Shown here: positions 28,398 to 50,681 of the stretch, piece by piece
Layout of the letters: every line of letters starts with the position of its first letter
Position numbering within the stretch: the first letter of the stretch is position 1
From: Ectocarpus siliculosus
Taxonomy: Eukaryota; Sar; Phaeophyceae; Ectocarpales; Ectocarpaceae
Direction of reading: 5' to 3'
Assembly (NCBI GenBank): GCA_000310025.1
Contig: FN649736.1
Span: forward strand, 1,569,817-1,633,816
DNA: 64,000 bases
The notes under the pieces: generated by a model
What the model was told of the DNA's origin: nothing
The model's input: the letters and a program-made list of their open reading frames with translations, nothing else
The model's database searches: none
Made by a program: the position numbers and the translations under genes

Positions 28398-28639
28398 CAG
28401 CGTACATTTATTATCATGAAACCAAGTTCAGAAAAAAAAAAAAATACGCACACGCCGTGGCACACGTCTTTTCTGCATCAAAGTGCACGGTGCGCTCGCA
28501 AGGGAAAAACAGAGCAAAAAAATAATAATACGAAGCCAAATGGCGAAGCTAAAACGTCCATGCCTGCTCACAAAACCAAACAAAGTCGTAAACGTTTCAC
28601 ATGATTTCCCACTTGGCTGTAACAACGTGAGGTCGTCGC

Positions 28640-29045: not shown

Positions 29046-29090
<45 letters not shown>

Positions 29091-29730: not shown

Positions 29731-30514
29731 GTGACGCTGCTGGCTGCCGATTCGGCGACTGGTGGTGTGCACTCATGATATACCGGCACGCTTGCTGCGT
29801 GGCGCCAAACGACCCGCGAGGAGAATATCCCTCGTTCTCGCCGGCAAACTCACCGCCACGCTGCTGCTGATGCAACGAAGAAAATGTGGCAAATCCTCCG
29901 TTCCGCTGCGGCTGTTGAAATCCACCACGATCGCTGCCGTACACCACGCCTGGCTGCTGCTGGTGAAACGCAGACCCTCTGCCAAACCCGCCGTGCCTCC
30001 ACTGCTGCTGGAACGACTGCTGTACGGGGACACCTCCGCATGACTGCTGTTGACCATGCTGCTGTTGTACTCCGAGTCCACCGCCGGCTCCGTACTCCCG
30101 CTGCACCTCGTAGAGTTGATGCTGTGGAAGAGACGCAGGAACTGGCGGGTGCTGCACTATCAACCCGATCCCCCAGCTAGCCAATAGCTCCAAATTCGAG
30201 ACATCCAGACGTTCCACTTCGAGACCGAAGCTGTCCAAGAACTCCTGCTCCTCGCTGTTGAGCTGAAGAGACACCGAACCGGGCAGATGCTGCACTGCCG
30301 ATCCGTTCCTCCCGCAATCCTGAAAGAAACTAGCCGTTCCCCCGGCTCCATCCCTATAATATCCAGACGCATACCCAGCGCCATCCACCCTATCTCTAGT
30401 AGCGTCTCCCGCTGAACTGCGCTCCCTTTCCTCCTCAATTCTCCTCCGTAACTCCGCATTCTCGGCTTCCACTTTCTTCATTCCTTCTTCCAACTCTCTC
30501 TCTCTTTCCGTCAT
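29009..30514 (-). CDS. 501-codon low-complexity ORF with N-terminal coiled coil
   Basis: The frame starts at an ATG at 30514. Residues about 1-33 form a charged coiled coil (MTERERELEEGMKKVEAENA). Next comes a region with a leucine-rich patch (EEQEFLDSFGLEVERLDVSN) and a Gln/Gly-rich segment. The last 250 residues are Ala/Ser/Gly runs encoded by the trinucleotide tract, including WSGAPTRPFDPGKT repeats. No catalytic domain is seen. The non-repetitive first 200 residues look like real coding sequence. Related repeats (block I/II) lie outside both ends, so it may belong to a gag-only or otherwise non-autonomous element. It could also be a host gene; I do not recognise it. Confidence 0.4.
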
Positions 30515-30686
30515 CGCTGAACCAACACCTGGCCTAGCTAGGCTCCACCGATATCGTGTTAGTGCACTGCCGCCCTCAGCGGTCTGTGGTGTTGAGACTG
30601 GGGACTATGTTATCCCAGGAACAGCTGATAAAAAAGGACCATGTATTGTATATATTCGTCACGCAAGCCCCTCAGGCAAGCTGGTA

Positions 30687-30957
30687 TTCGACACGCAAGC
30701 CCGTCAGGCAAGTGCCGGGAGCACACAGACCCCGCACTTGGACCACAACCGATACATACCCTCACACCCATACTTCCCATACGCGTATCCCCCACAGAAG
30801 ATGCACAGATCGGACTCATATCCAAGTACCACAAACAGTGTCCTCGCATCCAATAAAGGAATAAAGGAACGAACGATTTCTTTCAAGTCTCTTCGTCTCG
30901 GAACACAAATATATACTTGGAGCTCTGGAGCCCCAAACATATTTTTGCTCACGATTT
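30687..30957. repeat. Composite dispersed repeat, copy 2
   Basis: Block I (30687-30836), block II (30839-30916) and a piece (30893-30957) that matches 22012-22070 inverted. The copy lies directly upstream of the outer LTR element's target site. Confidence 0.65.
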
Positions 30958-30981
30958 GTCGCAGCTTGCGCAGTCTGCTAT

Positions 30982-31279
30982 TGTAATGGAGCAACTAGTG
31001 TATTTGCATTGTACGAGCGTTTCATGAACGTTGTATGAGCGCTTATTGGATATTGTGAACTTGCTTTGGATATGGATATTTGGCGACGTTGGAGGGGTAT
31101 TGAAGTAGCTTGAAGGAAGATCAAAATCCCAGCCCCACTCCCTCACTCTCCGAGTGGGCGCTGAGCGGACCTGGTCTAAGAAGGCTAAACAAGAGATCAA
31201 ACAACAACTGTGAGTACCCGAAGCCAGGAACAACGAGCTTGCTCCCTTCCCTCTTTTATTTCTCTGTTCCTGCATAACA
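30982..31279 (+). repeat. 5' LTR of the outer element
   Basis: TG...CA terminus, 298 bp, about 96-97% identical by eye to 50384-50681. Confidence 0.92.
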
Positions 31280-31281
31280 TT

Positions 31282-31296
31282 GTGGCGTCGTCTGCA
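31282..31296 (+). other. Primer-binding-site candidate, outer element
   Basis: TGGCGTCGTCTGC starts 3 nt after the LTR. The same TGGCGTCG or TGGCGTTG start follows the 5' LTRs of the inner element and of the TRIM, so the three probably share a primer tRNA type. Confidence 0.5.
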
Positions 31297-31407
31297 GGAC
31301 ACCGGTCCTTCGCTTCGGTGCTCATCGTTCGCGTGAACGTCTCGCATTTACGTCTTCTCGATTTTTTTTAGTTACCTGGTTTTAGAGACGGGCCTCAACA
31401 CATCCCA

Positions 31408-34400
31408 TTGACAGGGTGCGCCGAGTTGGAGCCAGGTGAGGTGCTTGGAGTGGCGACTGCCCCACTTGTGCAGATTCCGCTTGCGTCGATTGATCCTACA
31501 CCGCAGACGGCCGAGGGTGATGGGTTGAGTGACCCTCCGCCGCCAGCCCGTTCCGCGGATGGGCCGCCGTCTCGCGTGAATTCTTTGCACTCAAACATCC
31601 CGGTTGCGGATCCGGAGATCTCGGATTCCCCCGCGGCCTCACTGCCGCCGAAACCGCCGCCACCGGATCTGTTGGAACGCCTCTCAGAAGCGCAGCGAGT
31701 GAGTTTTCGCGAGTTGTGGCAACGTTTGCCTGCACATTTGCACGATGTGACTTTTGATTTACATGACTCGGGTTGGACCCCGGAAGCCATCGACAGCCTC
31801 GCGGATGTGCTGTGTGACTTTTCGGATGTGTTTTCGCGGTCACCGTCCGATTTCGGTTGCTGTTCCGTGAAACCGTTTCGTTTGGAAGTGCCCCCGGGAA
31901 CGAAACCGTTGGCCTCGCGTCCCTGTAGGCTCAACCCATTGGTGGAGAAAAAGGTCGATGCAATTCTCGATCAATACCTTGCTGCCGGTCTTATTCAGCA
32001 CTCGCAATCGCCGTGGGCGAGCCCTCTGGTTGTCATGCCTAAAAAGGACGGCAATCTGCGTTTGACCGTGAACTACAAAAAGCTTAACAAATTGTGCAGC
32101 CTTGGTCAACAACCGCAGTCGCGAGTTGACCACATCATCGATTCCCTGCACAAGGGCAAGGTGTTTTCCATTTTCGATCTTAACTCCGCTTTCCACCAAA
32201 TCACCGTCGAAGAGGACATGGTTCAGCTTACGGCGTTTTGTACGCCCACGCAACTTTTCGAGTGGCTCCGTATGCCTCAGGGAAGCTCCGTGGCACCGTC
32301 GTGGTTCACCATGGTCATCAACGAAGTGGTTAAAGGTCTGGACCATGTGCTTGCATACCTGGACGATGTGATTGTGTTTGACGTCGACCCCATCCACCAT
32401 GTCGCCAACATACGGCTATTTTTGGAGCGTTTGCGCAAGTTCAACCTCAAGCTTTCTCCTTTCAAGAGTCGCGTCGGCGCTAAGGAGGCTGTTTATTTAG
32501 GTCACACAATCTCCCCTGCGGGTGTTAGTCCTCGTGCCGATAAGGTCGAAGCCCTCACAAAAATGCCGCTGCCTAACAACGTCAAAAAGCTGCGTTCCTT
32601 GCTGGGTGGGCTTTCGTATTACCGCAAATTCATCAAGGGTTTGGCCATGCGCGTGAAACCACTCACAGACCTTTTGCGTAAGGACGCGAAGTTTTGTTTT
32701 ACGCCGGCTATGGCGGATACCGTCAAAGAACTCTTGGCGAAACTGTCAGAACCTCCGGTTTTGGCTTTCCCGGACTGGGACGCTGTCGCAGATGGCAGCC
32801 GCCCTCTCCGGCTTTGCTGTGATGCCTGTATCGATGGTTTTGGTGCGGCCCTTGAACAGGAACAGGCCGATGGTTCCATCCGTCCCATTCTGTTCGTTAG
32901 CCGCGCTACGCTCGAATCCGAGCGCAACTGGACAGTGCTCGACTTGGAAGCTGGAAGTATCGTGTGGGCAATTAAACGCTTACGCGGTTATTTTTGGTCT
33001 ACGCACTTTCTGATTTATTCGGATCACAAGGGTTTGGAGAGCATCGTCAAGGTGGGTGAACACAACGCCCACGTCCAACGTTCGCTCGAGTTCCTTTCCT
33101 CGTTCAATTACACCCTTGTCTACCGCAAAGGCACTGCCAACGCCAATGCGGATTTTCTTTCGCGGTTGCCCTTGCCGGCAACCGACACGGATAGACACGT
33201 GACACCAGTATCGCAGTCGATGACGCCGCGGGCGTGTATCTCATTCGTGCGTGCGGACGGAGTTATCACTCTAGTTCGACGCCGAACATCGGCTTGGGTG
33301 GGCTTGACATTGACGATCAACGAGACGCGTTGGCACACGCGCCTCTGACGGAGGATGACTTTGGAGACTTCCGCCGTTTTGGGCCACAAATGGTCCTGCC
33401 GGCTCTGTCGCCCTCCTCCGTAGTTGATTCGTCGAAATTTTCGCCGCCTGGTGTTTTCGCTGTCGTTTGCGATGCAGCCCCCGAGAGTTCTGTGCCCGAT
33501 GGACCTCCTCCGGCTTCCGTTTCTGCGGAGACAGACGCCGCTCCCTCGTCCACCGTCGGAACCTCCTCAGCTGCCCTGTCGCTTTCGCGTGGCCCTCTGA
33601 TTTCTTCTCGTACCCGGGCGAGAACGAATTCGGCCTCGGGCATGGCTCATAGCCGTCCTAATTATTTTCCGAAACAACCCCGGGCCGTTGTGGTGCCCAG
33701 ACCGCCGCGACCTCCTCGAACACCGGCCCGGTCGAGCCGTGCCGCGCGGTCTACGAGAACCGTGGGTAGCCCTACTTCTGGCCCGCTGCCTTCTCCGGCG
33801 CCGGCTGAATTGCAGCCGCCGCCGCCCGCGGCGCCCATGCCGCCAGTGTTGTCGCCCGCAGGTACTAGCCCTGCGACTTCCGTGGTGCCGCCCACGGCCG
33901 CTGAGGAAGCTCACCTCCGCGACTGTGTGCATACAATCTCGCATGCCGATTGGGCCCGAGAACAGCTGTCAGAAAGTGAGTGTGTCGCGGCTATACATTT
34001 TTTGTCTTTGGGATCCCCGGCGGTTTTGCCGGATACATTCTGGGATTGCTTGCCCTGTGCGCAACGGCCGGCGTTGTCTGATGTTGTCGCCTTCGCATCT
34101 AAAACATGCCTGCACACACAGACGATGGTACGCGATTGTTGGTGCGAAATTCTGCCCCACTGCCTCTCGGTAGTTCGGGCGGGCGTATCACTCGCCTCCC
34201 GCCTTCGAAGACTCCGCGCATATACGTGCCTATGCTATTGCGACCTTGGGTCCTACAAGCATGTCACGCCACCGCGTCTTTTCACCTGGGCACCGCTCGG
34301 ACTTTACGTATGTTGGAGCGATTTTTCTGGTGGATTGGGATGGGTTTGTCCGTTCGTTGGTGGCTTCGGCATTGTTTAATTTGCCAAGCGCGCAAGACTT

Positions 34401-36156
34401 CCCGGCAAACGTATCGTTGGCCTACGCTCACTCTGCCCCTCCCGAATGGGCCGGGTATTGTAGTGAGCGTCGATTTTTTTGGGCCATTTCCGGTCACGTC
34501 CCGTGGGAATGCATACATACTTTTGTTTACGGACCGTTTCAGTCGACGGGCGGATATGTATGCCACTACCAAGGCGGAATTTACCGCTAAGGGAACGGCT
34601 AACATTTTCGTCAACCGCTACATGGCGTTGTGGGTTTGTCCGGTGACTCTTCTTTCGGATGACGGTATGCAATTTTGTTCCAAGTTGTCCATGGCTATTT
34701 ACGGGTTGATGAAGATCAAGAAAGTCACCACCAGTTCGTACCACCCCCAAACTAACGATGGGGCCGAGTGTGTTAACCACACCATGGCTCAAACGCTTGC
34801 TGTTGTGGTCAATGAGCGTCAGGACGATTGGGACGTCCATCTTCCCCATGTCGAGTTTGCATACAACAACTCGGTAAACACCGCCACAGGTTTGGCGCCA
34901 AATGAAGTGTATATTGGACGGTTGCCCCGTCTCCCGCTTTCTGTTTTGGACCACCCTAGTGTGGGTGGCCATCAAAGTTTGGATCGAGACCAGCTCGTTT
35001 TCTTCAATCTTGCGGTTGAACGCCAGAGACGAGCTTACGCGTTGGTGCGGGAACAACATGCGATTACGGTGTCGCGTGTCGAACGTCGTAACTCTGCACT
35101 GTTGGACGGTCTGCGTCAGATCCCGAAATACGAAGTTGGTGGTTGGGCTTGGGTCTACAACTCTGCCGCTACTATTCGGCAGGGTGTGCGGAAACACACC
35201 CATGATTCGGTGCTCAAAGCGAAGCTTTCGCTCAACTACACCGGACCATATAAAATCCTTGCTGTTGGCCCGGCTAAAGCGGAGGATTCACCGGATGGAA
35301 AACCTGTGGAGCGCAAACTTCTCTACCTGGACCTGCCGTCAGACATGCTGGGACCAGAATCCCGCAACCGTGTCTCCGTCTTGCGGTGCAAACCGTGTAC
35401 CAACCCATACGACACGGATGACCTGCCTAAGTATATGCCGGCCAATCTGTCGAAATATGTTTTGCACTCGTATAGTAACAAGTCTCCCCCGTATAATTTG
35501 ACTGCTGATGATATTTTAGCGGAGTCTAGTCGTCTGGATGTTGAGAATATTTCAGGACACCAAATTGTACGTGGACTCGGTGGTGTGGTAGCTGTCTTGT
35601 ACCTGACTCATTGGATTGGTTTGTTGACACCGTCGTGGGAAAGGGAGTCTGATTTGCAGGAATACAGAAAACACATTCTGCTTTACTGGTCTGGTAACGC
35701 TAGTCAGCGCGTACAAGGAAACCGAGCTTATCGTAATGCTCGGATAGCTTCGGCCGACCGAGAACTTGCTCGGAATCAGGCCGAAACGTTTCATTGCTCC
35801 TGGGTACGAGTTGGTTTCGCGTGACGTTTGGTTGGCTCGCTTCTCTGTTTCTGTTTTGCCCCGTGGGAGCCCACATTTGGTACAGAGCTTTGGATGGACT
35901 TTGGTGGCTTGGGCAGATTAGTAGTTTCGTAACAGGCCAGTACATTGTTCGATTTTTGGACACCCCCGGCCCTCGAAAGCTTTCTCTCCCAGAGTATAGT
36001 TACTCCACGGCTTTGGATGCTCCTTGTGGTTCTTGGTGCTTGCAAAAACACCGTACTCGTGGTTTGACCAACCCTTCCACGGATGATGGCGTTACGTCGC
36101 GAACACCAGGCGTTGTGGCACAGCTGGCTGTTGCCCCATCTGGATCTGTGCTTTGA
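31408..36156 (+). pseudogene. pol: Outer element pol: RT, RNase H, integrase, chromodomain; frameshifted
   Basis: The frame enters at the protease-RT linker (AELEPGEVLG) and gives reverse transcriptase with YLDD at about 32356, then RNase H (LRLCCDACIDGFGAALEQE), up to 33348. Alignment to the inner Pol shows frame changes near 33.2 kb, 34.1 kb and 35.8 kb, joining the frames 31408-33348, about 33210-34105, 34106-35824 and about 35800-36156. Integrase landmarks remain (HLGTARTLRMLERFFWW, VDFFGPF, SDDG, ECVNH), as does the chromodomain-like segment (THWIGLLTPSWE). No gag, NADAR or protease precedes it. It cannot make one polyprotein, so it is a dead relative of the inner element. Confidence 0.88.
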
Positions 36157-36381
36157 TACCATGCCGCCTACGGGCCGCTACATGTTTTTTATCTTTTGTT
36201 CTACATCGTACGCAGTGGTACGCTAGCGCGTGTTTGGGTGGTGTGAGCTTCTTCCATTGTTGCAATAGTCACCCCGACCTTTGCGTGCCCAACGCGACCG
36301 AACCCCATTTTGATTCAGATTGGTTCCGTCGTTGGCGATGTGATTCTCAGTAGTCATCACTGTGTGGTGTGGGGATGGTTT
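36157..36381 (+). other. 3' untranslated part of the outer element (left of the nested insertion)
   Basis: Non-coding sequence downstream of the outer pol. It resumes at 50220-50383 after the nested element; GTTT at 36378-36381 is the left target-site copy. Confidence 0.8.
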
Positions 36382-36690
36382 TGTTATGGTATTTGGAGGT
36401 AGACAGGTGATAGTGGTTGATCATGGTTATTTGGCGCCGTCGGATGCTATGGCGTGACGTCATGCTAGATCAGGGCTTTATGCCGAGACATGTGCCCTTC
36501 TGTTCAGTGTGTGCGTACAGGCGATCTATGATCGTGTGTGCGTGGGATATTGTGAGTTGGCTTGGAAAGCGTCAATCAAGAGAAAGAGAACAACGGAAAG
36601 CAACAGCAACCTGCTACTGTGGTCGGACAAGAGAGTTCCACACAGCTCAAAGGTGATTGATTCTGAAGGAAGGGGTCAAATACCATTACA
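36382..36690 (+). repeat. 5' LTR of the inner element
   Basis: 309 bp, TG...CA, about 99% identical to 49907-50219. Confidence 0.95.
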
Positions 36691-36807: not shown

Positions 36808-39800
36808 ATGTCGGCTCCTGATGAGCCGCGAGGTAGCAGCGACTCCGCTACCTCGACCCCGGTCCCTTTGTCGCCGCACAACACTCCTGATGATGATGGT
36901 CCGAATGCGTCGCGTAGCTCGCTCCGTGTTGATGAGGATTCGCCGAGTGCCTCCTTGCATGTTCGCGGTCGGACTTTTCAGCAGCAGCAGCAGCCACGAT
37001 CGCGATCGCAGTTCGGACGCACGTTAGCAGACGTAGACTCTCAGGAAGATGATGTTGCACGATCGCACACTGAAGGCCTTGGTCGCGCGCCGCGCTCCAG
37101 GTCTGTGCCCTCTCGTGATTCAGCTCGCCGCTGGTCATCAGATGTGGCACACCGCCTTGAGACACCTGCAGAAATGCAGATGCGCTCGGTGGTTCAACGC
37201 CACACTCACACCCCGCATCCATATCCGAACACAGCAATGTGCCGGAATCGGATGGTGAAGGCTCTCGCTCTCCGAGTTTGATTGAAGCCTCACGCACGCA
37301 CACGAATGAAGCTCACCGCTCCATTGTGCGCGTGTCGGACGCCCCCAGTGGCGCGGTCGAGTCTAGTACTCCTGCCCCTGGTAGCCAAGCTGTCGCTGTC
37401 GGCATGTTTGAACCTCAGAGTTTGAATTATTCCGACGCCAGCCCGGCTGCATCCCATTCCGAGCGCGGATATGTGCCGAATGTGGATAGTGTTGGCTCTC
37501 ACTCCACGAGTTTGATCGATGCCTCACACACGCACTCGATTGGAGTTGGCAGCTCCGTCGAATGCACGTCAGAACGCACCAGCGGAGCGGTCGCCGCGAG
37601 CGATTCCGCCCCTGGTTTCGCTGTCGCAAGCCCCCGAGAAACTATCAAAACGTTCTCTCGGCTGCATGCCGACACCCCTTCTTTATCGCATTCCGAGAAC
37701 ACCACAAATGTTTCGGAGATGGATGGAGATGGCTCTCGCTGTCAAAGGTTTGAGAGTCACTTGCGATCTCACAGCAGTCGGATACCCTGAGATCCACTGA
37801 TGGAGAGACACCGCAAGCCACCAGTGGCGCATTTGCTGCAAGCAACCCTGCCCCGCCTGGTGCCGCGCATGATGCAAGCGACGCTGCACTTGTGTACCCG
37901 CGTCCACAATCACGGGAATGAATACACAGACAGTAGTGAATATGTTCCGACTGGCAACCATGCTTCTGCCCCTGTCCGCACCGATGCAATTAATTGCAGG
38001 CAGAGACGTAGAACCTGTATCTTATGTATCTTATCTTTACCCGCCGTAGACGAAGATCGTACCCCTACAGCAGCCCCTCCTCTCCCATTTGCGCCCACAC
38101 CCGTGCAAACTACGAGTATGCCTGTTGTTAGACGGTCACGGCGTCTAGCTGGTAAACCACCATCTGACGCTCTCGATCTAGCACGGTCAACGGCCGCTCC
38201 AACGCGTCCTGTGCCTGCCCATGAAATTACCGAAAAACGACTACACCCAGTTGTACCCCATGGTAATGCAATCTCGTCTGTTGGACTTTCACCCAGCTCA
38301 CCGGCTCTAATGAGCATGGTTTGCAGCAGGCTCGCCCTTACCCTTCGGGGTATGGTTCGCAGAGCCCCTCGCTCACCGATCCTACGGGAGATTTGGTTCG
38401 ACGCGAAACCCTCCCAGCTCACCGGCTCTAATGAGCATGGTTTGCAGCAGGCTCGCACTTACCCTTCGAGGTATGGTTGGCAGAGCCCCTCGCTCACCGA
38501 TCCTACGGGATTTGGTTCGACGCGAAACCCTCACACCGACTCACAGGGGTTCGGTGCGGAGCCCTCGCTCACCGATCCTACGGGATTTGGTTCGACGCGA
38601 AACCCTCCCAACGACCCACAGGGGTTCGGTGCGGAGCCCTCGCTCACCGATCCTACGGGATTTGGTTCGACGCGAAACTCTCCCACCGACCCATAGGGGT
38701 TCGGTGAGGAGCACACGCTCACCGGTACTTTCGGGATTTGGTTCGCAGCACATGGCGCTCACCGGCTCGAATAAGCTTGGTTCCGAGCCCCAGCACGCCG
38801 GCCCTGCGGGGTACGGTATGCCATACCAGCAGCAAGGGCTGTTGCTGAATCCACCACTGTCCATCGCTAGAGGTGGTTATGTGGTACCGCCCCCGGCCCA
38901 ACCGTCATACAGCCAAATGGCGCAAGGACCGCCGGATCTCAGCCTCCGAACGGGGGGTGAATTGTTCCTTGACATTCCGGTGTCTAACTTCGCGCACGTG
39001 CACCAGCAGGCCTTCACGGAAGCATGCAGGATACAAGTCACCAAGGCGGCTACAGTGCTGACGACGATGTTAGAAACCTCGGAGAGACCTATGGTCATTC
39101 TCCGTGAATTCATGCATCACGTCGCTCATGCCCCTACGGTAGACGCCCCGTTAGTCGAATCGGTAACGCGCCTTCTGCACGGGCTCAGAGGAGGTTACGC
39201 TAACCTTACAGGTGGCTACCGCCCGGCGGAGGTCAACTGGTACCTTCCCCCTTCGATTCTGCCAACGACGTTTGGTGCTTCTGCAGCATTCGCCAAGCAG
39301 ACGGGCGATTTCCGTGTCGTCACCCACCGAAAGGTGAAGAAAGAGCGCGCTACCGACAGCAGCAGCTCCCACAGCCGTGGCAGCCGTGGTCGTGGTAGTG
39401 GTCGAGGTTCTTCCAGCAACCGTGGACGTGGCAACAATAACGGTCACCGTCAACGAAGTTCGCGAGGGTCGCGCTCTTCCGCAGCTAGCGAAAGTGACGC
39501 GTCGGCTTCCGTGGCCGCCAGCAGCTCCAAGAGATCGAATCGAGGCAAACGTGGCAACAAGCGCTCTGGGTCCAACGGCCGCCGAGAGGAGGTCGCTGTT
39601 GAACGCAAGCCTTCGGCGACTAAAAGCGTCAGCAAGGAGGACACGAGTCGTGGCCGTCGTCGTAGCCGGAGTCATAGCAGGAGCTGTAGCCCACGCCGCC
39701 GCGGACACCGCCGCGGGCACCGAAGCAGCGACGGCTCGGAGGCACCAGCCTATGAGGATCACTCCCCTGTGGAGATCTTTGACGCAAACCAACCGCACCT

Positions 39801-39867
39801 GACCACCGATCTTCCACTGGAAGAGCGTCTGGACCAACCCCTGACAGCCCCACGTGATGACAGGTGA
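36808..39867 (+). pseudogene. Inner element leader region upstream of Gag (disordered, repeat- and RS/RGG-rich, frame-broken)
   Basis: A true ATG at 36808 opens a Ser/Pro/Gln-rich frame (MSAPDEPRGSSDSATSTP) that ends at 37281. The coding signal continues in another frame at 37239-38696 with one TGA at 37788, then returns to the first frame at 38431-39867. The last frame has a structured part with FLDIPVSNFAHVHQQAF and then a strongly basic region of RGS/RGG and RS dipeptides (for example GRRRSRSHSRSCSPRRR). The frame changes coincide with tandem repeats. The region is probably the N-terminal part of an ancestral Gag. It could be separate overlapping ORFs, but the pattern looks more like indel damage. 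Confidence 0.6.
38295..38715 (+). repeat. 75-bp and 121-bp tandem repeats in the Gag leader
   Basis: Units starting CGCTCACCGATCCTACGGG recur at 38491, 38566 and 38641, a period of exactly 75 bp (25 codons). Upstream, a longer unit beginning AGCTCACCGGCTCTAATGAG recurs at 38295 and 38416 (period 121). The first long unit has a 2-bp GA insertion relative to the second, which shifts the frame. Confidence 0.85.
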
Positions 39868-41069
39868 AGCAGCGTATGGACGACGGTATGAACGGAGGAG
39901 AAGCTTTCAAGCACCTTCTTCGTCTGATCGCGTCCCACTTCAAGCATGAAGACCGTGGAGACGCCTTGACAACGCTGAATGCGTTCGGTGTTCCCAACGG
40001 AACTACGTTTGGAGAATTTTTGCGACAGTATCGTACTGCCGTGAACAACATCACGCACTATTCCAGTCTTTTTAGCCTCAACGAGACTTGGATTGTCGGG
40101 ATCACAAGGAATAAGATCAACGACCAGTTTTCTGTGATGATGTCTGACTGTTTTCCGGGTGCAAAGCGTACCGCTGCAGAACCCTACAGTAGTCTGGATG
40201 AGATGTGGCGAGTGCTGAATGAGTTCACGACCTCTAAGGTTAAGGCAGAGAATGGCGAGCAATATGCTGCGCTCTCGCTTAGTGGATTATCGTTGCATTC
40301 GCAAGGCGGTAGTCGTTCTCAAGGACGTTCGACGACGCAATCGCAGCAGCCTTGGAGCTCCCAGGGAGCACGTGGCAAATCGGTCATGCGTGTTAAGGCA
40401 GAGCCAATTCATGATGTGTTTTGTGTTAGCTACGATGCTTGGCCGCTGGCCACCGATGATCATTGGGAGACAGTGCATGCTGTTGTTTCCAGTGGTTTCA
40501 AACGTCAACTCCCCCCCCTTTGGACACCACTCCTTAGGACTAGAGCTGACCGAGCACAAGCGTTCAGCGCGAATGCTGGCCGTTGTTTAAACTGTCACGG
40601 GTCTGGCCACTCCATCAAACACTGTGAACAGCCTTTCACCAATGCTAGTGGTGTCCTGAACCCAGATTTAGGTGCACTGACTGATGGTGATGACACGTTT
40701 CGCCTGTGGCAAGAGCGCTTGCGGTCCTGGAGGACTAAGCCTGCGACTGCCACAACACACGGCTCACGCAACTCGAATGGCCAACAAAACCGGCGCCGTT
40801 CACACAGACCAGCTCATAGAGTTCAATACGCTGGTAACGCTCCAAACCCGCAACAATACACTCAGACGTGGCATCAACCGCCACCACAGGGCCTGCTGCA
40901 ATCTAGTGCACCAGCCCAACAGCACACATTGGTAGCATACCAGCCTCATGCAGGTACTGCTCCAGCGTCTGCCACACACGCGCAGCCGGCGTTAAGAATC
41001 AACAGCCGGCTCCCCGTAGACTCCAACCCAAATGCCCGCACTCCTGGAACGTATAATGCTGGTAACTGA
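39864..41069 (+). CDS. gag: Gag: capsid-like domain and CCHC zinc knuckle
   Basis: The open frame overlaps the previous one by 4 nt; the first ATG is at 39876. Residues about 10-130 contain a retrotransposon-gag-like helical segment (FGEFLRQYRTAVNNITHYSS, then LDEMWRVLNEFTTS). At 40584-40625 the sequence CLNCHGSGHSIKHC is a CX2CX4HX4C knuckle that would bind RNA during packaging. The C-terminus is Gln/Pro/Ala-rich. The frame ends at TGA 41067-41069. The same frame continues open to TAG 41526, to TAA 41676 and then into the NADAR-protease ORF, so a single ancestral Gag-NADAR-protease polyprotein is likely. Stop read-through is the alternative. Confidence 0.8.
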   Translation: MKQRMDDGMNGGEAFKHLLRLIASHFKHEDRGDALTTLNAFGVPNGTTFGEFLRQYRTAVNNITHYSSLFSLNETWIVGITRNKINDQFSVMMSDCFPGAKRTAAEPYSSLDEMWRVLNEFTTSKVKAENGEQYAALSLSGLSLHSQGGSRSQGRSTTQSQQPWSSQGARGKSVMRVKAEPIHDVFCVSYDAWPLATDDHWETVHAVVSSGFKRQLPPLWTPLLRTRADRAQAFSANAGRCLNCHGSGHSIKHCEQPFTNASGVLNPDLGALTDGDDTFRLWQERLRSWRTKPATATTHGSRNSNGQQNRRRSHRPAHRVQYAGNAPNPQQYTQTWHQPPPQGLLQSSAPAQQHTLVAYQPHAGTAPASATHAQPALRINSRLPVDSNPNARTPGTYNAGN

Positions 41070-41678: not shown

Positions 41679-43952
41679 GTGTCGCCGGGTTTAGCCACCT
41701 CGAGCGATGCTTTGGACATGTCCACTACGTACGGGTCATCGACAGCCTGCGGCGATACAGCCGATGGAACTCGAGACGGTAATAAAAGTCACTCGCCGCA
41801 CGGTGAAGCGAGTATGACCGATTGCGTTGAAAGAAATACGCGTCGATTTCCCGTGGTTTGCGATTCGCGGAGTACCAAAACTGAGCGGTCCCCAACCGCG
41901 ACCACGGAGGTGCTGACACCACCGTATTCGGAGGACGCTCCGATTGCGCCCCTCGCTGAACAAACAGCGAAAAACTCGCGACCCTCGTCAAGGGAGGTCC
42001 GTCATGTCTCCAACGTGATGGATTCTAGCGAAAGCACTACAGACTATACACCCCCACCGGGTTGCGCTGTTGGTAGAGTAGAGGACTTGGGGAAACAGAC
42101 ATCCCCCTCCTCCGCTAAAGCTGGTATTCGTATCTACCCTCCTCCTCCGACCGACGCCAGGTGTTCACCACCAGCGTTTGATCCGAGCAAGGAGTACTGC
42201 ACACCTGACATGGTGTTGTTCGGGCAAGCCCCGTCGGTTTTCTCGCAATGGACGCCCTCCATCTTTACTGTAGATGGTGTGGAATACTCTTGTGGAGAAC
42301 AATTCTTCGCGGCTGCCAAGGCTCGTCTCTTTGGCGACCAAGATACGTTGCGGCGGATTATGCGTGTTTCGGGCCCGATTAAACATAAGCGTTACGGACG
42401 CCAAGTTAAAGGGTTTGACGAAGCTGTTTGGGAGCGCGAGCGTGAAAACGTGGTGCGTGTCGCCTCCTACTACAATTTTTCGCAAAATCCCGCTATGCGA
42501 CAACATCTTTTGGGCACCGGCGACAAAATGCTCGTCGAAGCTAGCCCATTCGATGCCATATGGGGCATTGGACATCGCGCGGATGATCCTGCTGCAATCC
42601 AACCCTCTTTATGGCGGGGCTCCAATCTGCTTGGCAAAAGCCTGCAGGTTGTTCGAGACCTACTCCGAGAGCACGCGCCGACGCCGACACTTCCACCACA
42701 AGTTTCGTCCGACGCTCAGCTCCGGAATACAATACATGAGGTTAACCCTGCAACGCAAGAGCGTATTTCAACGGCTGCCGCCGAGGAGGCCGCCCCGTCG
42801 TCAGGTTACCGCATAAAATCAGCGCATGTTCCAAGGGATCACAGCGCTGAAGTTCTCGCGGTTACGTCCGCTGAGTATAATGAGGAAGATCGTGTACCGT
42901 TGCTCGCTGAGCATGGTCCTTGCCTCGTAGGTGGTGTTGTTACAGTTGACGACGCTTCATTTACGACTCGAGTCAAAATCCACGCTGGGCCAGCCAAATC
43001 ACAATATGGTTGCGCCGCTCTGCTCGATTCAGGATCACCGGCCACGTTCATCAACAGCAACGCTGTCGGTACCCTCAAAGCCATGGGAGCCATCTCAGAG
43101 GCTTGCATCTCGCACGGTAACTCACGTTCTTGGGGAGGTTTTGGTAAATCCGAGTCTCTTCAGACGTCTGATACAGTCCGTCTGAGTGTGCAATTTTTCC
43201 ACGGTGATACGCCTTCGGCTTCTCTTGCCGTTTGGGCGCACATCGTCCCTGCAAACACCATGCAATTTCCCATCCTATTGGGACGCGATAGTTTCATGCG
43301 ATTTAACACTCGCACGTACCGTATGTTGCCTCCGAGGCCACTGGACAATCGCGTTTTTGGTGAATATACGCTTGCCCACCAGGATGATTCTGGTGCGGTC
43401 GCGTATGTGCCCGATTTCACAGCCCCGGCGGACCAATTCCAGCTCCGTTATGCAGGGCCAACGGGTACTTCATTGTCAGACGACCACCAAATGATTGAAG
43501 TCAACTTGGTGCGTTCCAACGGTACACCGGCTCTGACCGGTCAATACCTTGTCGACATGTTGCCTGATGTTTCGTCGAACGAAGAGATCTTTGTCTCCGA
43601 CGGACGTCAGTTTGTGCCGCTCGCGGGCGCTGCAGAACTTGAGCCAGGAGACTTGCTCGGTACTGCTGCCGCCCCGCTGATGCGCGTCCCGGTAGAGCAT
43701 TTAGAACAACAGTTTAGTGACGAAGCTGACACTTCATGTTCGGTGCCTGGACCTATTTTGGGTTCTACCGAGGATAACGCGGACAGGACCGTCGATCCGC
43801 AGGTGCGTTGCCACGATCCCTTCGTGCACAACCTACGATCCACCGATCTTCCTGTGCCGGACCCAGGGAAATCACCCCCTGCGGCCCCTGCCCCCCGCTC
43901 ACACTTCGCCCTCGCCGCCACCACAGCATGTGATGGAGCGGTTGAGCGCTGA
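41679..43952 (+). CDS. NADAR domain fused to retropepsin-type aspartic protease
   Basis: The frame follows a TAA at 41676; the first ATG is 41718. Residues 1-170 are a disordered linker. Residues about 172-333 (42192-42678) match the NADAR fold from end to end: an FSQW segment, CGEQFFAAAKARLFGD, GRQVKGFDEAVW, LLGTGDKMLVEASPFDAIWG and WRGSNLLGKSLQVVRDLL. NADAR proteins (YbiA and the DarT1 antitoxins) cleave ADP-ribose N-glycosidic bonds. Residues about 425-545 form a retropepsin: LLDSGSPATFI with the catalytic Asp at about residue 450 (43026), and FPILLGRDSFMRF near its end. The C-terminal segment AELEPGDLLG also begins the outer element's pol. The last 236 nt overlap the Pol frame, which is +1 relative to it. 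All key protease residues and the whole NADAR core are intact. Confidence 0.88.
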   Translation: MSPGLATSSDALDMSTTYGSSTACGDTADGTRDGNKSHSPHGEASMTDCVERNTRRFPVVCDSRSTKTERSPTATTEVLTPPYSEDAPIAPLAEQTAKNSRPSSREVRHVSNVMDSSESTTDYTPPPGCAVGRVEDLGKQTSPSSAKAGIRIYPPPPTDARCSPPAFDPSKEYCTPDMVLFGQAPSVFSQWTPSIFTVDGVEYSCGEQFFAAAKARLFGDQDTLRRIMRVSGPIKHKRYGRQVKGFDEAVWERERENVVRVASYYNFSQNPAMRQHLLGTGDKMLVEASPFDAIWGIGHRADDPAAIQPSLWRGSNLLGKSLQVVRDLLREHAPTPTLPPQVSSDAQLRNTIHEVNPATQERISTAAAEEAAPSSGYRIKSAHVPRDHSAEVLAVTSAEYNEEDRVPLLAEHGPCLVGGVVTVDDASFTTRVKIHAGPAKSQYGCAALLDSGSPATFINSNAVGTLKAMGAISEACISHGNSRSWGGFGKSESLQTSDTVRLSVQFFHGDTPSASLAVWAHIVPANTMQFPILLGRDSFMRFNTRTYRMLPPRPLDNRVFGEYTLAHQDDSGAVAYVPDFTAPADQFQLRYAGPTGTSLSDDHQMIEVNLVRSNGTPALTGQYLVDMLPDVSSNEEIFVSDGRQFVPLAGAAELEPGDLLGTAAAPLMRVPVEHLEQQFSDEADTSCSVPGPILGSTEDNADRTVDPQVRCHDPFVHNLRSTDLPVPDPGKSPPAAPAPRSHFALAATTACDGAVER

Positions 43953-46900
43953 TCAGAGAGTTAGCTTTGAGTCATTGTGGAATCGCTTGCCGCCTCACCT
44001 GAAGTTGGTTAAGTTTGATTTACACGGTCCTGGTTGGTCACCAGAGGTCATCACAGAACTTGGTGATCTTTTGCATGATTTCCAAGACGTGTTTTCCACA
44101 TCCTCGACGGATTTAGGGTCCTGTTCCCTGATGCCGTTTGAGATCAAAGTACCTCCGGATTGTCCCCCGGTGACGTCCAAACCGTACCGTATGAATCCTT
44201 TGGTTGCGAAGCAAGTCGATGCCATTTTGGACCAGTATCTAGCTGCTGGCCTAATTCAGCACTCGACCTCTCCTTATTCCAGCCCCATCGTGGTTATACC
44301 AAAGAAGTCTGGTGGAATACGCATCACGGTTAACTACAGAAAGTTGAACCATATCAGCAGCTTTGGTCAACTTCCCATCCCCCGAGTCGACGAGATTCTA
44401 GCGAAACTCAACAGAGGTTCGATTTTCTCGCTATTCGATTTCACGGGTTCTTTCCACCAGATCACTGTCCACAAGGACACTGTCCCCCTTACGGCTTTTG
44501 CGACCCCCACTCGTTTGTTCGAATGGCTCCGCATGCCGATGGGTGCTAGCCAATCCGCAGGCCACTTTGTGAAAGTGATTAACGAAGTAATCAAAGGACT
44601 CGATGGAGTCGAGGCATACCTCGATGACGTCGTTGTTTTTGACGAAGGCCCATGGCAGCATGTCCGTAATATGCGCACGCTCTTCGAACGGTTGAGAAAG
44701 TACGACCTCAAACTTTCTCCCTCGAAAGCCACCATCGGTACCACCAAGGCTGACTTCTTGGGGCACACCATATCTTCGAAAGGTGTCCTCCCCAACGCCC
44801 GTAAAGTAGCCGCCCTGGCAGGTATGCCCATGCCTACGACCGTCAAGCAACTCAGGTCACTCATGGGTGGTCTGAGCTACTACCGACGTTTCCTCAGAGA
44901 CATGGCCAAGCGTGTGAAGTCCATTACGCACTTGCTCAAAAAAGGTGTTCCCTTCGCTTTCACGAGCGACATGGAAACAACTGTTCGCAGCCTACTGGCT
45001 GAGCTCGCGAAACCGCCCATTTTAGTGTTTCCTGATTGGGACGCTATCGCGGACGGTACACGCCCTTTACGTCTTTGCTGTGACGCCAGCTCCGACGGTC
45101 TCGGCGCCGCGCTGGAGCAAGAGCAGAAAGACGGCTCGGTACGGCCGATCGTTTTCATCAGCAGAGCCACGCTCGACGCTGAACGCAACTGGACCGCTCT
45201 CGATCTCGAAGCAGGAGCCGTTGTATGGGCGATCAAGCGTCTCCGCGAATACCTTCGTGGCACACACTTCCGCATCTATTCCGACAATAAGGCTCTGGAA
45301 AGTTTGTCAAAAATCAGCGAGCACAACCCACGCGTCCAACGCTGGATTGAGCTCCGTGAAGCATACAGCTACACGTTGGAGTACCGACGAGGTGCCTCCA
45401 ACGGAAACGCTGACATGCTGTCTCGTCTGCCGATTGAGCCTACTGCCGCCGACATCAACGGTAACAGTCGTTTGACGTCCCCAGAAGACGTTGGTGTGTA
45501 TCTGATCCGAGCGACAGGTCACGCACCACCCGGACAAACCACGCCTGGCGTTGGTTTGGGTGGGCTGGCGCCCCCGAGCGAGAACGCCGCTTTGGGTGGG
45601 CTACCCCTCACTTCCGATGATTTTGCGGATTTTCGCAAACACGGGCCTCGAATGAGGATTGACGACCTAGATGCTCCTGCAGGAGAATTCGTCGCTCGTG
45701 TTTTTCCGTACGTCAATGCGCGAGGACCTTTGCGACACCTTGCGGACGATCGTGCATTGTCTTGCACCGACCACTCCGTATTTGCTGTGCCTGAGGTTAC
45801 TTCCGCTGCAACCCAGAAAATACAGGGCGCTGTGCCGGCACTCCGGTCTTCAGCTTCTCCTGTTGTGTCTCCGATGAGACCATTGTATAGGGACACCGCC
45901 ACGGTTTACGGACCGTCTGCGCGACCCCACACGGATACAGCTGCATTTGCGCTCCCTGTCCACGACACACAGACCGCCGACGATAACTCTCGGTTGCCCC
46001 CTGTCGTGTCTCCTGCGACCGCAATTGTCGACGCCGGCTCCCACTCTTATCGTTTAGATGCCGCCGACTCATTGCCGCCGCCTTCGACCTCTCGGTTGCA
46101 ACCGCATCGTATTGATCCGTCGGAACTGATCTCTACTCGTACGCGTCGCCGAACCGCGGCTGCTGCGGGTCAGCCTCAACCCGATGTAAACTACGGTTTC
46201 GGTCCTGATTTGTCGATCCCCCCACACGTTCCGCGTGCAGGCGCTTCTCGTCGTCAAACACGAGTGACACCCGCTGCCACCACGCCTGAGCCTGCTGTCG
46301 AACCTGTCCCAACGGTGCCCGTAGCGCCGCCGGAGACGGTTACCGACGCCCCTACGGGTCCTCTGTTGGGTTTGTCACAACCGGCTGCTGCAGCTGGTAA
46401 GGCAACGCCCGCAGTGGATTCCATGATCCTCAATCCTGCAGAGTTAGAATTCCGTGAGTCCGTCGAACGCTACACGCGTGCCGATTGGGCGCGGGAACAG
46501 CAGAAAGAGCCGGTGTGTGAAGCCACCATCCGCTATATTCTCCTCAAACGCCCTCAGAGTCTACCTGTCGATTTCTTTGCCAGAGTGTCATATCACTCCA
46601 GGCATAGACCCTCGTTGGAGGATATTCGAGAGCTTGCAGATAAAGGACGCCTCGTCACTGACGATGGCCTTTGCCTCTTGGTACGAAAGAATACCAAGCC
46701 CCCGGTCTCTTCTGACCGTCCCGGAGGACGAGCTGCACGCCTGTTGAATGACGAACCCACTCGTATTTACGTGCCCATGTTAATGCGACCTTGGGTCATG
46801 CAAGCTTGTCATGCCAACGCCCTCTGCCACCTTGGTACCGCTCGCACGCTCAGCTTGCTTGAGAGGTTTTACTGGTGGATTGGGATGAGTATCAGTACTC

Positions 46901-48705
46901 GTTGGTGGATTCGGCGATGTTTGAAATGTCAGGCCCGCAAAACTGCGCGCCAGACTATTCGCTGGCCGATTCTCACGATCCCTCTGCCTTCGGCACCAGG
47001 GGTCGCGATTAGCGTCGACTATTTTGGTCCGCTTCCCACAACTCCGCGAGGTTTCTCGTATATTTTGCTATTCACTGACCGTTTCAGTCGGAGAGCCAAT
47101 ATGTACGCAGTGACTGACGCCGAGTTCACCGCTGAAGGTACAGCTGACGTCCTTGTCAATAAATACATGCCTGTTTGGGGATGCCCCCTCAGCATTCTTT
47201 CTGACAACGGATTGCAGTTATGCTCCAAACTGTCGGTTGCCATCCTAAAATTGCTACGCGTCCGAAAAATTACGACGAGCGCGTACCACCCTAGCGGCAA
47301 CGGAGGAGTTGAGCGCGCGAACCACACCATGGCCCAGATGCTGGCAATGGTTGTGAACGAAGGACAAGATGATTGGGACATTCATCTCCCTCATGTTGAA
47401 TTCGCGTACAACAACTCCGTTAGCGCTGCCACAGGATTGGCGCCCAATGAGGTGCATATGGCGCGCCTTCCCAGGTTTCCACTGACCGTTTTTGACAACA
47501 TTTACGCTCGTGGTCACCAGTCGCTTGCCCGCGATCAGCTCGAGTATTGCAACCTTGCCGCCGATCGGCAACGGCGCTCCTACGAGCTAGTGCGTGAACA
47601 ACACGAACTCACAGTTTCCCGTATGGAAAGACGGAACTCGAAACTGTCTGATGCCTTACACAAACTACCCGTTTACGCTACCGGTGGTTGGGTGTGGGTC
47701 TACAACCATTTGGCTACCATCCGCCAAGGTGCCAAACTCACTTCCAAGGCCCGCGCAGACGCTGACTCCCAGGTACTCAAGAAGAAGCTGTCCTTGAATT
47801 GGACAGGTTCTTTTAAAATCCTAGCAGGTCCTTTTAAAATCCTAGCAGTCGGTCCTTGCAACAAGGCTCCCGATGGCAGCCCGATGGCTGACAAGCTCCT
47901 GTTCTTGGATCTTCCCTCCGATATGCCCGGAGTGGATGCCAAGCGCCGAGTTTCTGTCGCTCGTTGCAAACCGTGTGCGAACCCGCACGATAGTGACGAC
48001 ATGCCTCGGTTCTTGCCTGCAGGCCTCACGCAGTATGTTCTCAACAACTTCACGACGAAGTCTCCGCCGTACCATGTTACCGCGGACGATGTTTCGGCGC
48101 CTGTCCGCAGGCTCGAGGTTGAGAAAATCACGGGACACCAGTCGGTTCGAGGACGTGGCGGCGTTATCGCAGTCATGTACGAGACCTACTGGAAAGGTCT
48201 TCTGCGGCCCTCGTGGGAACGAGAAATGGACCTCCAACACTCCCGAAAACAGATTCTTCTGTATTGGGCTGGTACACCCGACCAACACCGGCAGACTAAC
48301 CGTCTGTATCGTCGCATGCGCATTGGCGCAGCGGAACGTGAACTGTCTCGCATCAAAGGCGAGCGGTCCTCGTCGCCTGGGTACGAATATGTTCCCCGCG
48401 ATGTTTGGGCCCGCCGTTTTCGCAACACCGTGCTGCCTGTTGGCGCATACTTCTGGTACAAGGCTCAAGACGCTCTATGGTGGCTAGGGAAAATCTCCGG
48501 ACACACTCCAACTACAAACGTCTTCTTCGTTCGCTTCCTGGAAGACCCTGGACCTGTCAAGATCACCCTCTCTCCTTCGCGCTACACAACAGCTTTGGGA
48601 GCTGTTTGTGGTTCTCGGTGCCTCCAGCTGCACCGAAGTAGTCCCTTCATGCGAGGTATGTTGCGCAATGTAGACGAGTCGCGTGGTACGGCTATAGATG
48701 CCTGA
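43717..48705 (+). CDS. pol: Pol: reverse transcriptase, RNase H, integrase, chromodomain-like module
   Basis: An intact frame of 1662 residues; the first ATG is at 43933, just before the conserved MERLSADQRVSFESLW. RT spans about residues 130-400, with FDFTGSFHQI and the catalytic YLDD at about residue 300. RNase H begins near 450 (LRLCCDASSDGLGAALEQE, SDNKALESL). A long Pro/Ser/Thr-rich linker of about 360 residues follows. The integrase HHCC module is near 1020-1075 (ACHANALCHLGTARTL, CLKCQ). The core has VDYFGP, SDNG and GGVERANH, with exactly 35 residues between the second Asp and the Glu. A chromodomain-like segment lies near 1466-1523 (TYWKGLLRPSWE), followed by a second small module (ALWWLGKISGHTPTTNVFF). 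A 24-nt duplication repeats FKILAGP. Expression requires a +1 shift from the protease frame, or initiation inside the overlap. Confidence 0.95.
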   Translation: MTKLTLHVRCLDLFWVLPRITRTGPSIRRCVATIPSCTTYDPPIFLCRTQGNHPLRPLPPAHTSPSPPPQHVMERLSADQRVSFESLWNRLPPHLKLVKFDLHGPGWSPEVITELGDLLHDFQDVFSTSSTDLGSCSLMPFEIKVPPDCPPVTSKPYRMNPLVAKQVDAILDQYLAAGLIQHSTSPYSSPIVVIPKKSGGIRITVNYRKLNHISSFGQLPIPRVDEILAKLNRGSIFSLFDFTGSFHQITVHKDTVPLTAFATPTRLFEWLRMPMGASQSAGHFVKVINEVIKGLDGVEAYLDDVVVFDEGPWQHVRNMRTLFERLRKYDLKLSPSKATIGTTKADFLGHTISSKGVLPNARKVAALAGMPMPTTVKQLRSLMGGLSYYRRFLRDMAKRVKSITHLLKKGVPFAFTSDMETTVRSLLAELAKPPILVFPDWDAIADGTRPLRLCCDASSDGLGAALEQEQKDGSVRPIVFISRATLDAERNWTALDLEAGAVVWAIKRLREYLRGTHFRIYSDNKALESLSKISEHNPRVQRWIELREAYSYTLEYRRGASNGNADMLSRLPIEPTAADINGNSRLTSPEDVGVYLIRATGHAPPGQTTPGVGLGGLAPPSENAALGGLPLTSDDFADFRKHGPRMRIDDLDAPAGEFVARVFPYVNARGPLRHLADDRALSCTDHSVFAVPEVTSAATQKIQGAVPALRSSASPVVSPMRPLYRDTATVYGPSARPHTDTAAFALPVHDTQTADDNSRLPPVVSPATAIVDAGSHSYRLDAADSLPPPSTSRLQPHRIDPSELISTRTRRRTAAAAGQPQPDVNYGFGPDLSIPPHVPRAGASRRQTRVTPAATTPEPAVEPVPTVPVAPPETVTDAPTGPLLGLSQPAAAAGKATPAVDSMILNPAELEFRESVERYTRADWAREQQKEPVCEATIRYILLKRPQSLPVDFFARVSYHSRHRPSLEDIRELADKGRLVTDDGLCLLVRKNTKPPVSSDRPGGRAARLLNDEPTRIYVPMLMRPWVMQACHANALCHLGTARTLSLLERFYWWIGMSISTRWWIRRCLKCQARKTARQTIRWPILTIPLPSAPGVAISVDYFGPLPTTPRGFSYILLFTDRFSRRANMYAVTDAEFTAEGTADVLVNKYMPVWGCPLSILSDNGLQLCSKLSVAILKLLRVRKITTSAYHPSGNGGVERANHTMAQMLAMVVNEGQDDWDIHLPHVEFAYNNSVSAATGLAPNEVHMARLPRFPLTVFDNIYARGHQSLARDQLEYCNLAADRQRRSYELVREQHELTVSRMERRNSKLSDALHKLPVYATGGWVWVYNHLATIRQGAKLTSKARADADSQVLKKKLSLNWTGSFKILAGPFKILAVGPCNKAPDGSPMADKLLFLDLPSDMPGVDAKRRVSVARCKPCANPHDSDDMPRFLPAGLTQYVLNNFTTKSPPYHVTADDVSAPVRRLEVEKITGHQSVRGRGGVIAVMYETYWKGLLRPSWEREMDLQHSRKQILLYWAGTPDQHRQTNRLYRRMRIGAAERELSRIKGERSSSPGYEYVPRDVWARRFRNTVLPVGAYFWYKAQDALWWLGKISGHTPTTNVFFVRFLEDPGPVKITLSPSRYTTALGAVCGSRCLQLHRSSPFMRGMLRNVDESRGTAIDA

Positions 48706-48735: not shown

Positions 48736-48810
48736 ATGTGTATGTATATGTATGTGTATATGTTTGTGTGTTACATGTTTGTGTTTATGTATGTTTGTCT
48801 GTATGTTTCT
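48736..48810 (+). repeat. TGTATG-type microsatellite
   Basis: A run of ATGTGTATGTATATG variants starts the 3' UTR of the inner element. Confidence 0.6.
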
Positions 48811-49013
48811 AGCTCGCCCTCTCGATCTATTTTCGAGACTGGCTATTGCTTCTGTATGTTTCTAGCTCGCCCTCTCGATCGGTTTTTGAGACTGGCTATT
48901 GCTTCTGCACGTTTCTAGCTCGCCCTCTCGAATATTTCGGGACTGGCTATTGCTCCTTTATGCTTTCCGCTCGCCCTCTCAATCTCTTAGAGACTGGCTC
49001 TTGTTTTTGTGTT
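48802..49013 (+). repeat. Four-copy 53-bp tandem repeat
   Basis: The core CTAGCTCGCCCTCTCGA followed by GAGACTGGCTATTGCTTCT recurs with starts near 48811, 48864, 48917 and 48968, in progressively diverged copies. Confidence 0.8.
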
Positions 49014-49906: not shown

Positions 49907-50219
49907 TGTTATGGTATTTGGAGGTAGACAGGTGATAGTGGTTGATCATGGTTATTTGGCGCCGTCGGATGCTATGACGTGACGTCATGCTAGATCAGGG
50001 CTTTATGCCGAGACATGTGCCCTTCTGTTCAGTGTGTGCGTACAGGCGATCTATGATCGTGTGTGCGTGGGATATTGTGAGTTGGCTTGGAAAGCGTTAA
50101 TCAAGAGAAAGAGAACAACGGAAAGCAACAACAACCTGCTACTGTGGTCGGACAAGAGAGTTCCACACAGACAGCTCAAAGGTGATTGATTCTGAAGGAA
50201 GGGGTCAAATACCATTACA
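49907..50219 (+). repeat. 3' LTR of the inner element
   Basis: 313 bp, the partner of 36382-36690. It is followed by the GTTT target-site copy. Confidence 0.95.
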
Positions 50220-50383
50220 GTTTGGAGTATTTGTCGGGGATGAAATATTTTCTCTGACCCTAGTTGCTTTTATTTTATCTTATTTCGTCTGATTTGGAAA
50301 GTCGCATCTTCGATCTTTATTTGAGGTTGAGTATTGGATTGACGATAAAGTATCTGCATCTACGACTTCCCAGGGTGGGCTAA
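50220..50383 (+). other. Remainder of the outer element before its 3' LTR
   Basis: Continues the outer 3' untranslated region after the nested insertion and ends in the polypurine-like CAGGGTGGGCTAA. Confidence 0.8.
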
Positions 50384-50681
50384 TGTAATGGAGCAACTAC
50401 TGTATTTGCATTGTACGAGCGTTTCATGAACGTTGTATGAGCGCTTATTGGATATTTTGAATTTTCTTTGGATATGGATATTTGGCGACGTTGAGGGGTA
50501 TTGAAGTAGCTTGAAGGAAGATCAAAATCCCAGCCCCGCTCCCTCATTCTCCGAGTGGGCGCTGAGCGGACCTGGTCTAAGAAGGCTAAAACAAGAGATC
50601 AAACAACAACTGTGAGTACCCGAAGCCAGGAGCAACGAACTTGCTCCCTTCTCTCTTTTATTTCTCTGTTCCTCCATAACA
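50384..50681 (+). repeat. 3' LTR of the outer element
   Basis: 298 bp, TG...CA, the partner of 30982-31279. It is followed by the CTAT target-site copy. Confidence 0.92.

What the first reader, a model, noticed from the sequence alone, without database searches (positions are those of the whole stretch)
42192..42678. A complete NADAR domain inside an LTR-retrotransposon polyprotein
The ORF upstream of pol encodes a full-length NADAR domain directly N-terminal to the retropepsin. All conserved blocks are present (CGEQFFAAAK, the GR..W segment, VEASPFDAIWGIG, WRGSNLLG). NADAR enzymes such as YbiA and the DarT1 antitoxins remove ADP-ribose adducts, including from guanine in DNA. A retroelement carrying one could reverse host ADP-ribosylation of its RNA, cDNA or proteins, as an anti-defence function. 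I am not aware of this fusion being described for gypsy elements. The reading frame across the domain is undamaged although nearby Gag regions are broken, which suggests selection or recent acquisition.
Basis: partly seen in the sequence, partly recalled or inferred. Interest (0 to 1): 0.92.

Follow-up and report, generated by a model that had tools for sequence, protein, structure and literature searches.

The report
ADP-ribose-removing enzyme inside algal retrotransposon
A jumping gene of a brown alga carries, in front of its usual copying enzymes, an apparently working enzyme domain that in other organisms strips ADP-ribose from guanine; the combination was already reported in 2025, but its intact active site and strong evolutionary conservation suggest that the element really uses it.

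The parts
36378..36381 (.). target-site duplication GTTT, left
   Evidence: read directly; the same 4 bases follow the right LTR at 50220-50223
36382..36690 (+). 5' LTR, 309 bp, TG...CA
   Evidence: 3 substitutions and 4 gap columns against the 3' LTR
39864..41069 (+). Gag ORF, 401 aa; zinc knuckle CX2CX4HX4C at 40584-40625
   Evidence: related Gag matched in 18 of 20 long copies
41679..43952 (+). Pol N-terminal ORF: linker, NADAR, linker, retropepsin
42231..42668 (+). NADAR domain (YbiA type)
42879..43358 (+). aspartic protease region; DSGS motif 43026-43037, LLGRD 43275-43289
   Evidence: motifs; homologous stretch in 20 of 20 long copies; Pfam only weak (Peptidase_A2B E 0.08, below cut-off)
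44296..44772 (+). reverse transcriptase, YLDD at 44617-44628
   Evidence: PF00078 E 5.3e-24, motif
45058..45354 (+). RNase H
   Evidence: PF17917 E 2.6e-29
46771..47292 (+). integrase: H2C2 zinc-binding and rve core
   Evidence: PF17921 E 4.2e-13, PF00665 E 3.5e-8
48115..48267 (+). putative chromodomain after the integrase
   Evidence: PF00385 E 0.048, below cut-off; the published lineage has a putative one
49907..50219 (+). 3' LTR, 313 bp
50220..50223 (.). target-site duplication GTTT, right

Best explanation
This is a copy of the NADAR-bearing Ty3/Gypsy lineage of Ectocarpus. Shown: order LTR-Gag-NADAR-PR-RT-RNaseH-INT-(putative chromodomain)-LTR, a predicted NADAR fold with the ADP-ribose pocket residues in place, and long-term purifying selection on it. 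Inferred: the domain is made as the first unit of Pol, is carried in the particle with RT and integrase, and hydrolyses ADP-ribose from guanine bases of the element's RNA template or single-stranded cDNA, so that adducts laid down by a host or stress-induced transferase do not stop reverse transcription.
Against: No enzyme assay. No guanine ADP-ribosyltransferase identified in the genome: DarT (PF14487) gave no match (its control rang in 1 of 14 genomes); PF03496 and PF01129 gave none, but their controls did not ring either, and all these searches ignore introns. None of the papers I looked at reports ADP-ribosylated nucleic acid in this alga. NADARs from other genetic contexts with activity in vitro did not efficiently rescue cells from DarT1 (PMC11125620), so activity need not mean antitoxin function. 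R93, a pocket residue, is Cys in 10 of 21 proteins from other sources. One young copy (C26, about 248831-256350, LTRs 99% alike) lacks both Gag and NADAR, so a copy without NADAR could evidently insert, perhaps helped in trans.
Confidence: 0.5

Rival explanations
1. The domain destroys a soluble ADP-ribose or NAD-derived signal or toxin of a host response rather than adducts on nucleic acid.
For: Proposed for phage NADARs in PMC9503650 (passages); several bacterial relatives are fused to other domains (PF00293, PF03747, PF00156/PF13793) that I know, from recall, as Nudix, ADP-ribosylglycohydrolase and PRPP-synthetase-type domains.
Against: The same paper argues that NADARs inside polyproteins of eukaryotic RNA viruses act on macromolecular adducts; placement inside Pol favours action in the particle.
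Confidence: 0.17
2. The domain takes part in processing the element's own RNA intermediate, without any host defence involved (the suggestion of Dinatale et al. 2025).
For: Stated as a possibility in PMC12477816; explains conservation in all clades without needing a host transferase, and none of the guanine-modifying kind was found.
Against: The substrates shown for the fold in the papers I read are guanine-ADP-ribose adducts, and the ADP-ribose pocket residues are the conserved ones.
Confidence: 0.17
3. The domain is now a structural or RNA-binding part of Pol and catalysis no longer matters.
For: K75, near the pocket and proposed to serve DNA recognition or DarT1 interaction in the E. coli C7 enzyme (its K115), is Lys in 50 of 55 copies.
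Against: E43, K50 and E125 are kept in 52, 53 and 53 of 55 own copies and in 20, 19 and 20 of 21 proteins from other sources.
Confidence: 0.08
4. Neutral passenger or assembly chimera.
For: Only that the window copy has private changes in conserved positions and that a copy without Gag and NADAR exists.
Against: 150 scored places, linkage 124 of 150, five diverged clades, dN/dS 0.137, and independent publication.
Confidence: 0.01

Closest known systems
NADAR lineage of Ectocarpus Gypsy elements, e.g. Gypsy-12_Ec32 (Dinatale et al. 2025, PMC12477816; section 5 read, passages elsewhere)
   Same: NADAR at the N-terminus of Pol, Gypsy element, putative chromodomain behind the integrase, same host genus
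YbiA-family NADAR hydrolases: Phytophthora nicotianae NADAR (8bau), E. coli YbiA (2b3w)
   Same: predicted fold; E43, K50, E125, W89 and W133 of 8bau
   Different: those are free-standing; here the residue at D86 (contacts the adenine-side ribose) is variable and Y84 is mostly Phe
DarT1-associated NADAR antitoxins (BC4488 family)
   Different: they use Asp where this has Glu and belong to DarT operons; no DarT match in this genome
Host gene Esi0017_0056 of Ectocarpus (PMC7922944, section 5 and abstract read)
   Same: NADAR domain, same genome, E43, K50 and E125
   Different: three-exon host gene, stress-induced; 40-49% identical to 20 retro domains and 49-51% to the three nearest bacterial ones; R79 and R93 are Lys
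Tx1 LINE ORF1 of Crassostrea gigas (reported in PMC12477816)
   Same: NADAR in a retrotransposon
   Different: LINE ORF1; seen only in that paper's text

Membership tests
NADAR superfamily, YbiA subfamily | significant profile match over the whole domain | tested here: met
   PF08719 10-163 of 163, 150.6 bits
NADAR superfamily, YbiA subfamily | YbiA fold | tested here: met
NADAR superfamily, YbiA subfamily | catalytic Glu in the last strand (E125) plus E43 and K50 | tested here: met
   53, 52 and 53 of 55 own copies; definition
NADAR superfamily, YbiA subfamily | guanine-ADP-ribose hydrolase activity | not testable with these tools
   needs purified protein
DarT1-associated NADAR antitoxin | Asp instead of Glu in the last strand | tested here: not met
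   Glu in 53 of 55 copies, window included
DarT1-associated NADAR antitoxin | adjacent darT gene | tested here: not met
   the neighbours in 20 of 20 long copies are Pol domains; no PF14487 match in the genome, a search blind to introns
Ty3/Gypsy LTR retrotransposon | paired LTRs with target-site duplication | tested here: met
   309 and 313 bp, 3 substitutions, GTTT on both sides
Ty3/Gypsy LTR retrotransposon | order PR-RT-RNaseH-INT | tested here: met
   20 of 20 long copies
Ectocarpus NADAR-Gypsy lineage | NADAR at N-terminus of Pol in an Ectocarpus Gypsy element | tested here: met
   genus inferred from the host gene and from named Ectocarpus relatives
Ectocarpus NADAR-Gypsy lineage | sequence identity to Gypsy-12_Ec32 | not tested
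Chromodomain Gypsy elements | chromodomain behind integrase | tested here: inconclusive
   PF00385 E 0.048, below cut-off

The most novel reading that the evidence does not exclude
A retrotransposon lineage keeps a guanine ADP-ribosyl hydrolase in Pol because its host (or an algal stress response) ADP-ribosylates retroelement RNA or cDNA; the host's own stress-induced NADAR, Esi0017_0056, and the retro domain descend from one bacterial gene, so that element and host carry rival copies of the same repair enzyme.
Probability: 0.17. Interest if true: 0.85.

Novelty: already known. Interest (0 to 1): 0.48.

Why it matters
If the hydrolase is active, it would be a case of a retrotransposon carrying an enzyme that repairs ADP-ribosylated nucleic acid, and it would point to base ADP-ribosylation in brown algae, which none of the papers I looked at reports. 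The conserved active site and the selection signal turn a domain annotation into a directly testable biochemical claim, and the host gene Esi0017_0056 gives a cellular counterpart with a published stress phenotype.

Tried and rejected
Chimera or contamination: rejected. NADAR-less sister lineage: 26 of 150 RT copies had no listed NADAR 1-5 kb upstream; two of these 26 (C25:499611 and C1:546109) do have a listed one about 0.9 kb upstream, under my limit. I examined 8 others of the 26: 3 have a frame-broken NADAR (L190, L191, L196), 1 (L189) is a young Gag+NADAR deletion, 1 (L194) has only a decayed PR, and 3 (L192, L193, L195) have neither PR nor NADAR within 3 kb; the remaining 16 were not examined, so a NADAR-less lineage is not excluded. 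Single origin of the retro NADARs: not rejected (p-AU 0.204) and not shown; in the best tree they do not form one group. Descent from the host gene: host plus retro lie on one side at 78/54 only; alternatives not rejected (p-AU 0.297 and 0.16); by identity the host domain is nearer to bacterial ones (49-51%) than to retro ones (40-49%), for which I lowered the novel reading from 0.20 to 0.17. ARTs: DarT none, PARP four exon-sized hits, PF03496 and PF01129 nothing with silent controls, Macro one. Bacterial relatives L129 and L131 show no obvious ART gene beside the NADAR, by eye only, among ORFs of 100 aa or more. Primer-binding site was not assigned to a tRNA. Literature: searches; I do not claim that nothing else is in print.

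Caveats on counts: the 41 NADAR copies are the window, the 20 best-scoring and 20 hand-picked from the list of 150, not a random sample; dN/dS used 32 of them (1 partial, 5 with stops, 3 with shifted or inserted stretches left out), 27 distinct. Between clades synonymous sites are saturated, so 0.137 is a model estimate; pooled within clusters pN/pS is 0.30 for NADAR, 0.36 PR, 0.26 RT, 0.36 INT, with non-independent pairs. The 55 copies are those with at least 125 aligned residues among 61 own loci (window, L009-L048, L168-L187, one of them the host exon); L001-L008, which duplicate L009-L016, were left out. The 21 proteins from other sources are taken as retro copies; 10 of them were read. 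Stops inside: 21 of the 150 places, counted by eye; 80 of 230 candidates were never scored.

Full report
What is there. The ORF at 41679-43952 encodes a NADAR domain (PF08719, E 6.2e-44, residues 185-330, window 42231-42668), followed by an aspartic protease (DSGS at 43026-43037; Pfam match weak). The next ORF, 43717-48705, encodes RT, RNase H and integrase and a weak chromodomain (PF00385 E 0.048, below cut-off). Upstream a 401-aa Gag ORF carries one zinc knuckle. LTRs lie at 36382-36690 and 49907-50219 with 3 substitutions and 4 gap columns between them, TG...CA ends and GTTT on both sides. So this is an insertion of a Ty3/Gypsy element about 13.8 kb long. In this copy the NADAR-PR frame and the RT-INT frame are offset from each other; in some other copies both domains lie in one open frame, for example C237 and C25:3767898 with 2537 aa each.

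It is a family, not an accident. The genome (189 Mb, 492 contigs) gave 230 NADAR candidates, of which 150 were scored and all 150 passed the cut-off; one of these 150 is a host gene exon (below). Of 150 RT places related to the window's, 124 have a NADAR 1.2-3.0 kb upstream on the same strand, median 2.03 kb start to start. Of 20 long copies fetched (the best-scoring), 20 have matches to NADAR, PR, RT, RNase H and integrase in that order and 18 have a related Gag. Five NADAR clades were seen; representatives of the other four are 53-65% identical to the window copy. Of the 26 RT copies without a NADAR in the 1-5 kb range, two have a listed one about 0.9 kb upstream; 8 others were examined: 3 have a broken NADAR, 1 is a young deletion of Gag and NADAR together, 1 keeps only a decayed PR and 3 have neither PR nor NADAR within 3 kb; 16 were not examined.

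Host. The genome is evidently Ectocarpus, strain not shown. At C24 (L188) lies a NADAR gene with two introns; my splice model (best of the splice-site combinations scored against a guide peptide, read from the first Met) is 391 aa, 43.1 kDa, pI 8.74. Rathor et al. 2021 (PMC7922944, section 5 read) give 391 aa, 43.1 kDa, pI 8.74, two predicted introns and the domain at residues 132-291 for Esi0017_0056, a stress-responsive gene that improves salt and heat tolerance in Arabidopsis (abstract). Proteins named Ectocarpus sp. CCAP 1310/34 are 86-94% identical to representatives of three of the window genome's NADAR clades. Rathor et al. thought lateral transfer followed by duplication likely for Esi0017_0056 and two Ectocarpus relatives; that those two are retrotransposon pieces is my guess and was not tested.

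Selection. Under a codon model the NADAR has dN/dS 0.137 (27 distinct sequences from 32 intact copies of 41 examined), against 0.160 for PR (10 distinct), 0.097 for RT (16) and 0.116 for integrase (11); fixing 1.0 costs 163 log units for NADAR. Pooled within young clusters pN/pS is 0.30. Selection thus keeps this domain about as strictly as the element's own enzymes. Copies with stops were left out for all four domains, which may lower all four values.

Origin. The nearest bacterial proteins found are in a Planctomycetota MAG (61%) and two Myxococcota MAGs (56-57% to the window copy), free-standing ORFs of 174 and 193 aa in the two loci read. Retro NADARs, these three and the host gene form one supported group (97/92); inside it the order is unresolved. 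One capture is not rejected (p-AU 0.204) but is not shown. The host domain is 40-49% identical to 20 retro domains and 49-51% to the three bacterial ones, which speaks against simple capture from the host gene. Homology of the linker and protease behind the NADAR between the window's clade and proteins such as P0008 and P0012 from an unnamed source argues for one capture and vertical descent (inference).

Prior art. Dinatale et al. 2025 (PMC12477816; passages, section 5) report that families of one of four Ectocarpus Gypsy lineages all carry a YbiA-family NADAR at the N-terminus of Pol, suggest possible horizontal transfer and a role in processing RNA intermediates, and note NADARs in Tx1 LINE ORF1 of the Pacific oyster. 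The finding is therefore already known in kind and in host. The structure match, active-site census, selection test, linkage count and link to Esi0017_0056 are added here; I did not see the paper's supplement.

Mechanism. In the study that compared hydrolase families, NADARs alone cleared guanine-ADP-ribose from RNA, and they did not act on phosphate ends (PMC11833690, passages); they also act on guanine in DNA (PMC11125620, passages). In animal RNA viruses NADARs sit in the polyprotein with the polymerase (PMC9503650, passages). By analogy the element most likely carries its NADAR with RT to keep template or cDNA free of guanine adducts. The missing piece is a host transferase: DarT gave no match, PARP only four exon-sized matches, and two further ART families nothing, with controls that did not ring.

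Noticed in passing
window 31846-34801 and 50350-50391: A related, apparently older Gypsy element (RT 61%, integrase 64% identical to the window's) lies upstream with no detectable NADAR or protease in 27000-36300; the sequence behind the 3' LTR resembles the element's own pre-LTR stretch, so the window element probably sits nested in the other one's 3' end.
   Followed up: partly
L188 (G000:C24:327800-334200): Three-exon host NADAR gene matching Esi0017_0056 in length, mass, pI and intron count.
   Followed up: yes
G000:C26 about 248831-256350 (L189 part): Young deletion derivative: 5' LTR joined to the protease region, Gag and NADAR missing, LTRs 99% identical.
   Followed up: partly
P0008-P0015, P0018-P0020, P0022, P0024, P0025, P0029: NADAR proteins from unnamed ENA contigs up to 2.5 Mb; the six placed in trees (P0008, P0011, P0012, P0015, P0024, P0025) form one further clade, and P0008 and P0012, read in full, show the same NADAR-linker-protease arrangement.
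   Followed up: partly
P0023, P0026-P0028, P0031, P0035: NADARs of probably bacterial origin fused to PF00293, PF06508, PF00156/PF13793 or PF03747; domain names Nudix, QueC, PRPP-synthetase-type and ADP-ribosylglycohydrolase are from recall.
   Followed up: no
window 38487-38729 and 48798-49007: Short tandem repeats in the 5' part (75 bp period) and behind Pol (about 53 bp period) of the element.
   Followed up: no
Viral-contig scan: 192 viral-contig stretches encode NADAR relatives; the best 80, the only ones kept, are 38-49% identical to the window domain, and none of the 69 in the tree falls inside the group that holds the retro domains.
   Followed up: partly
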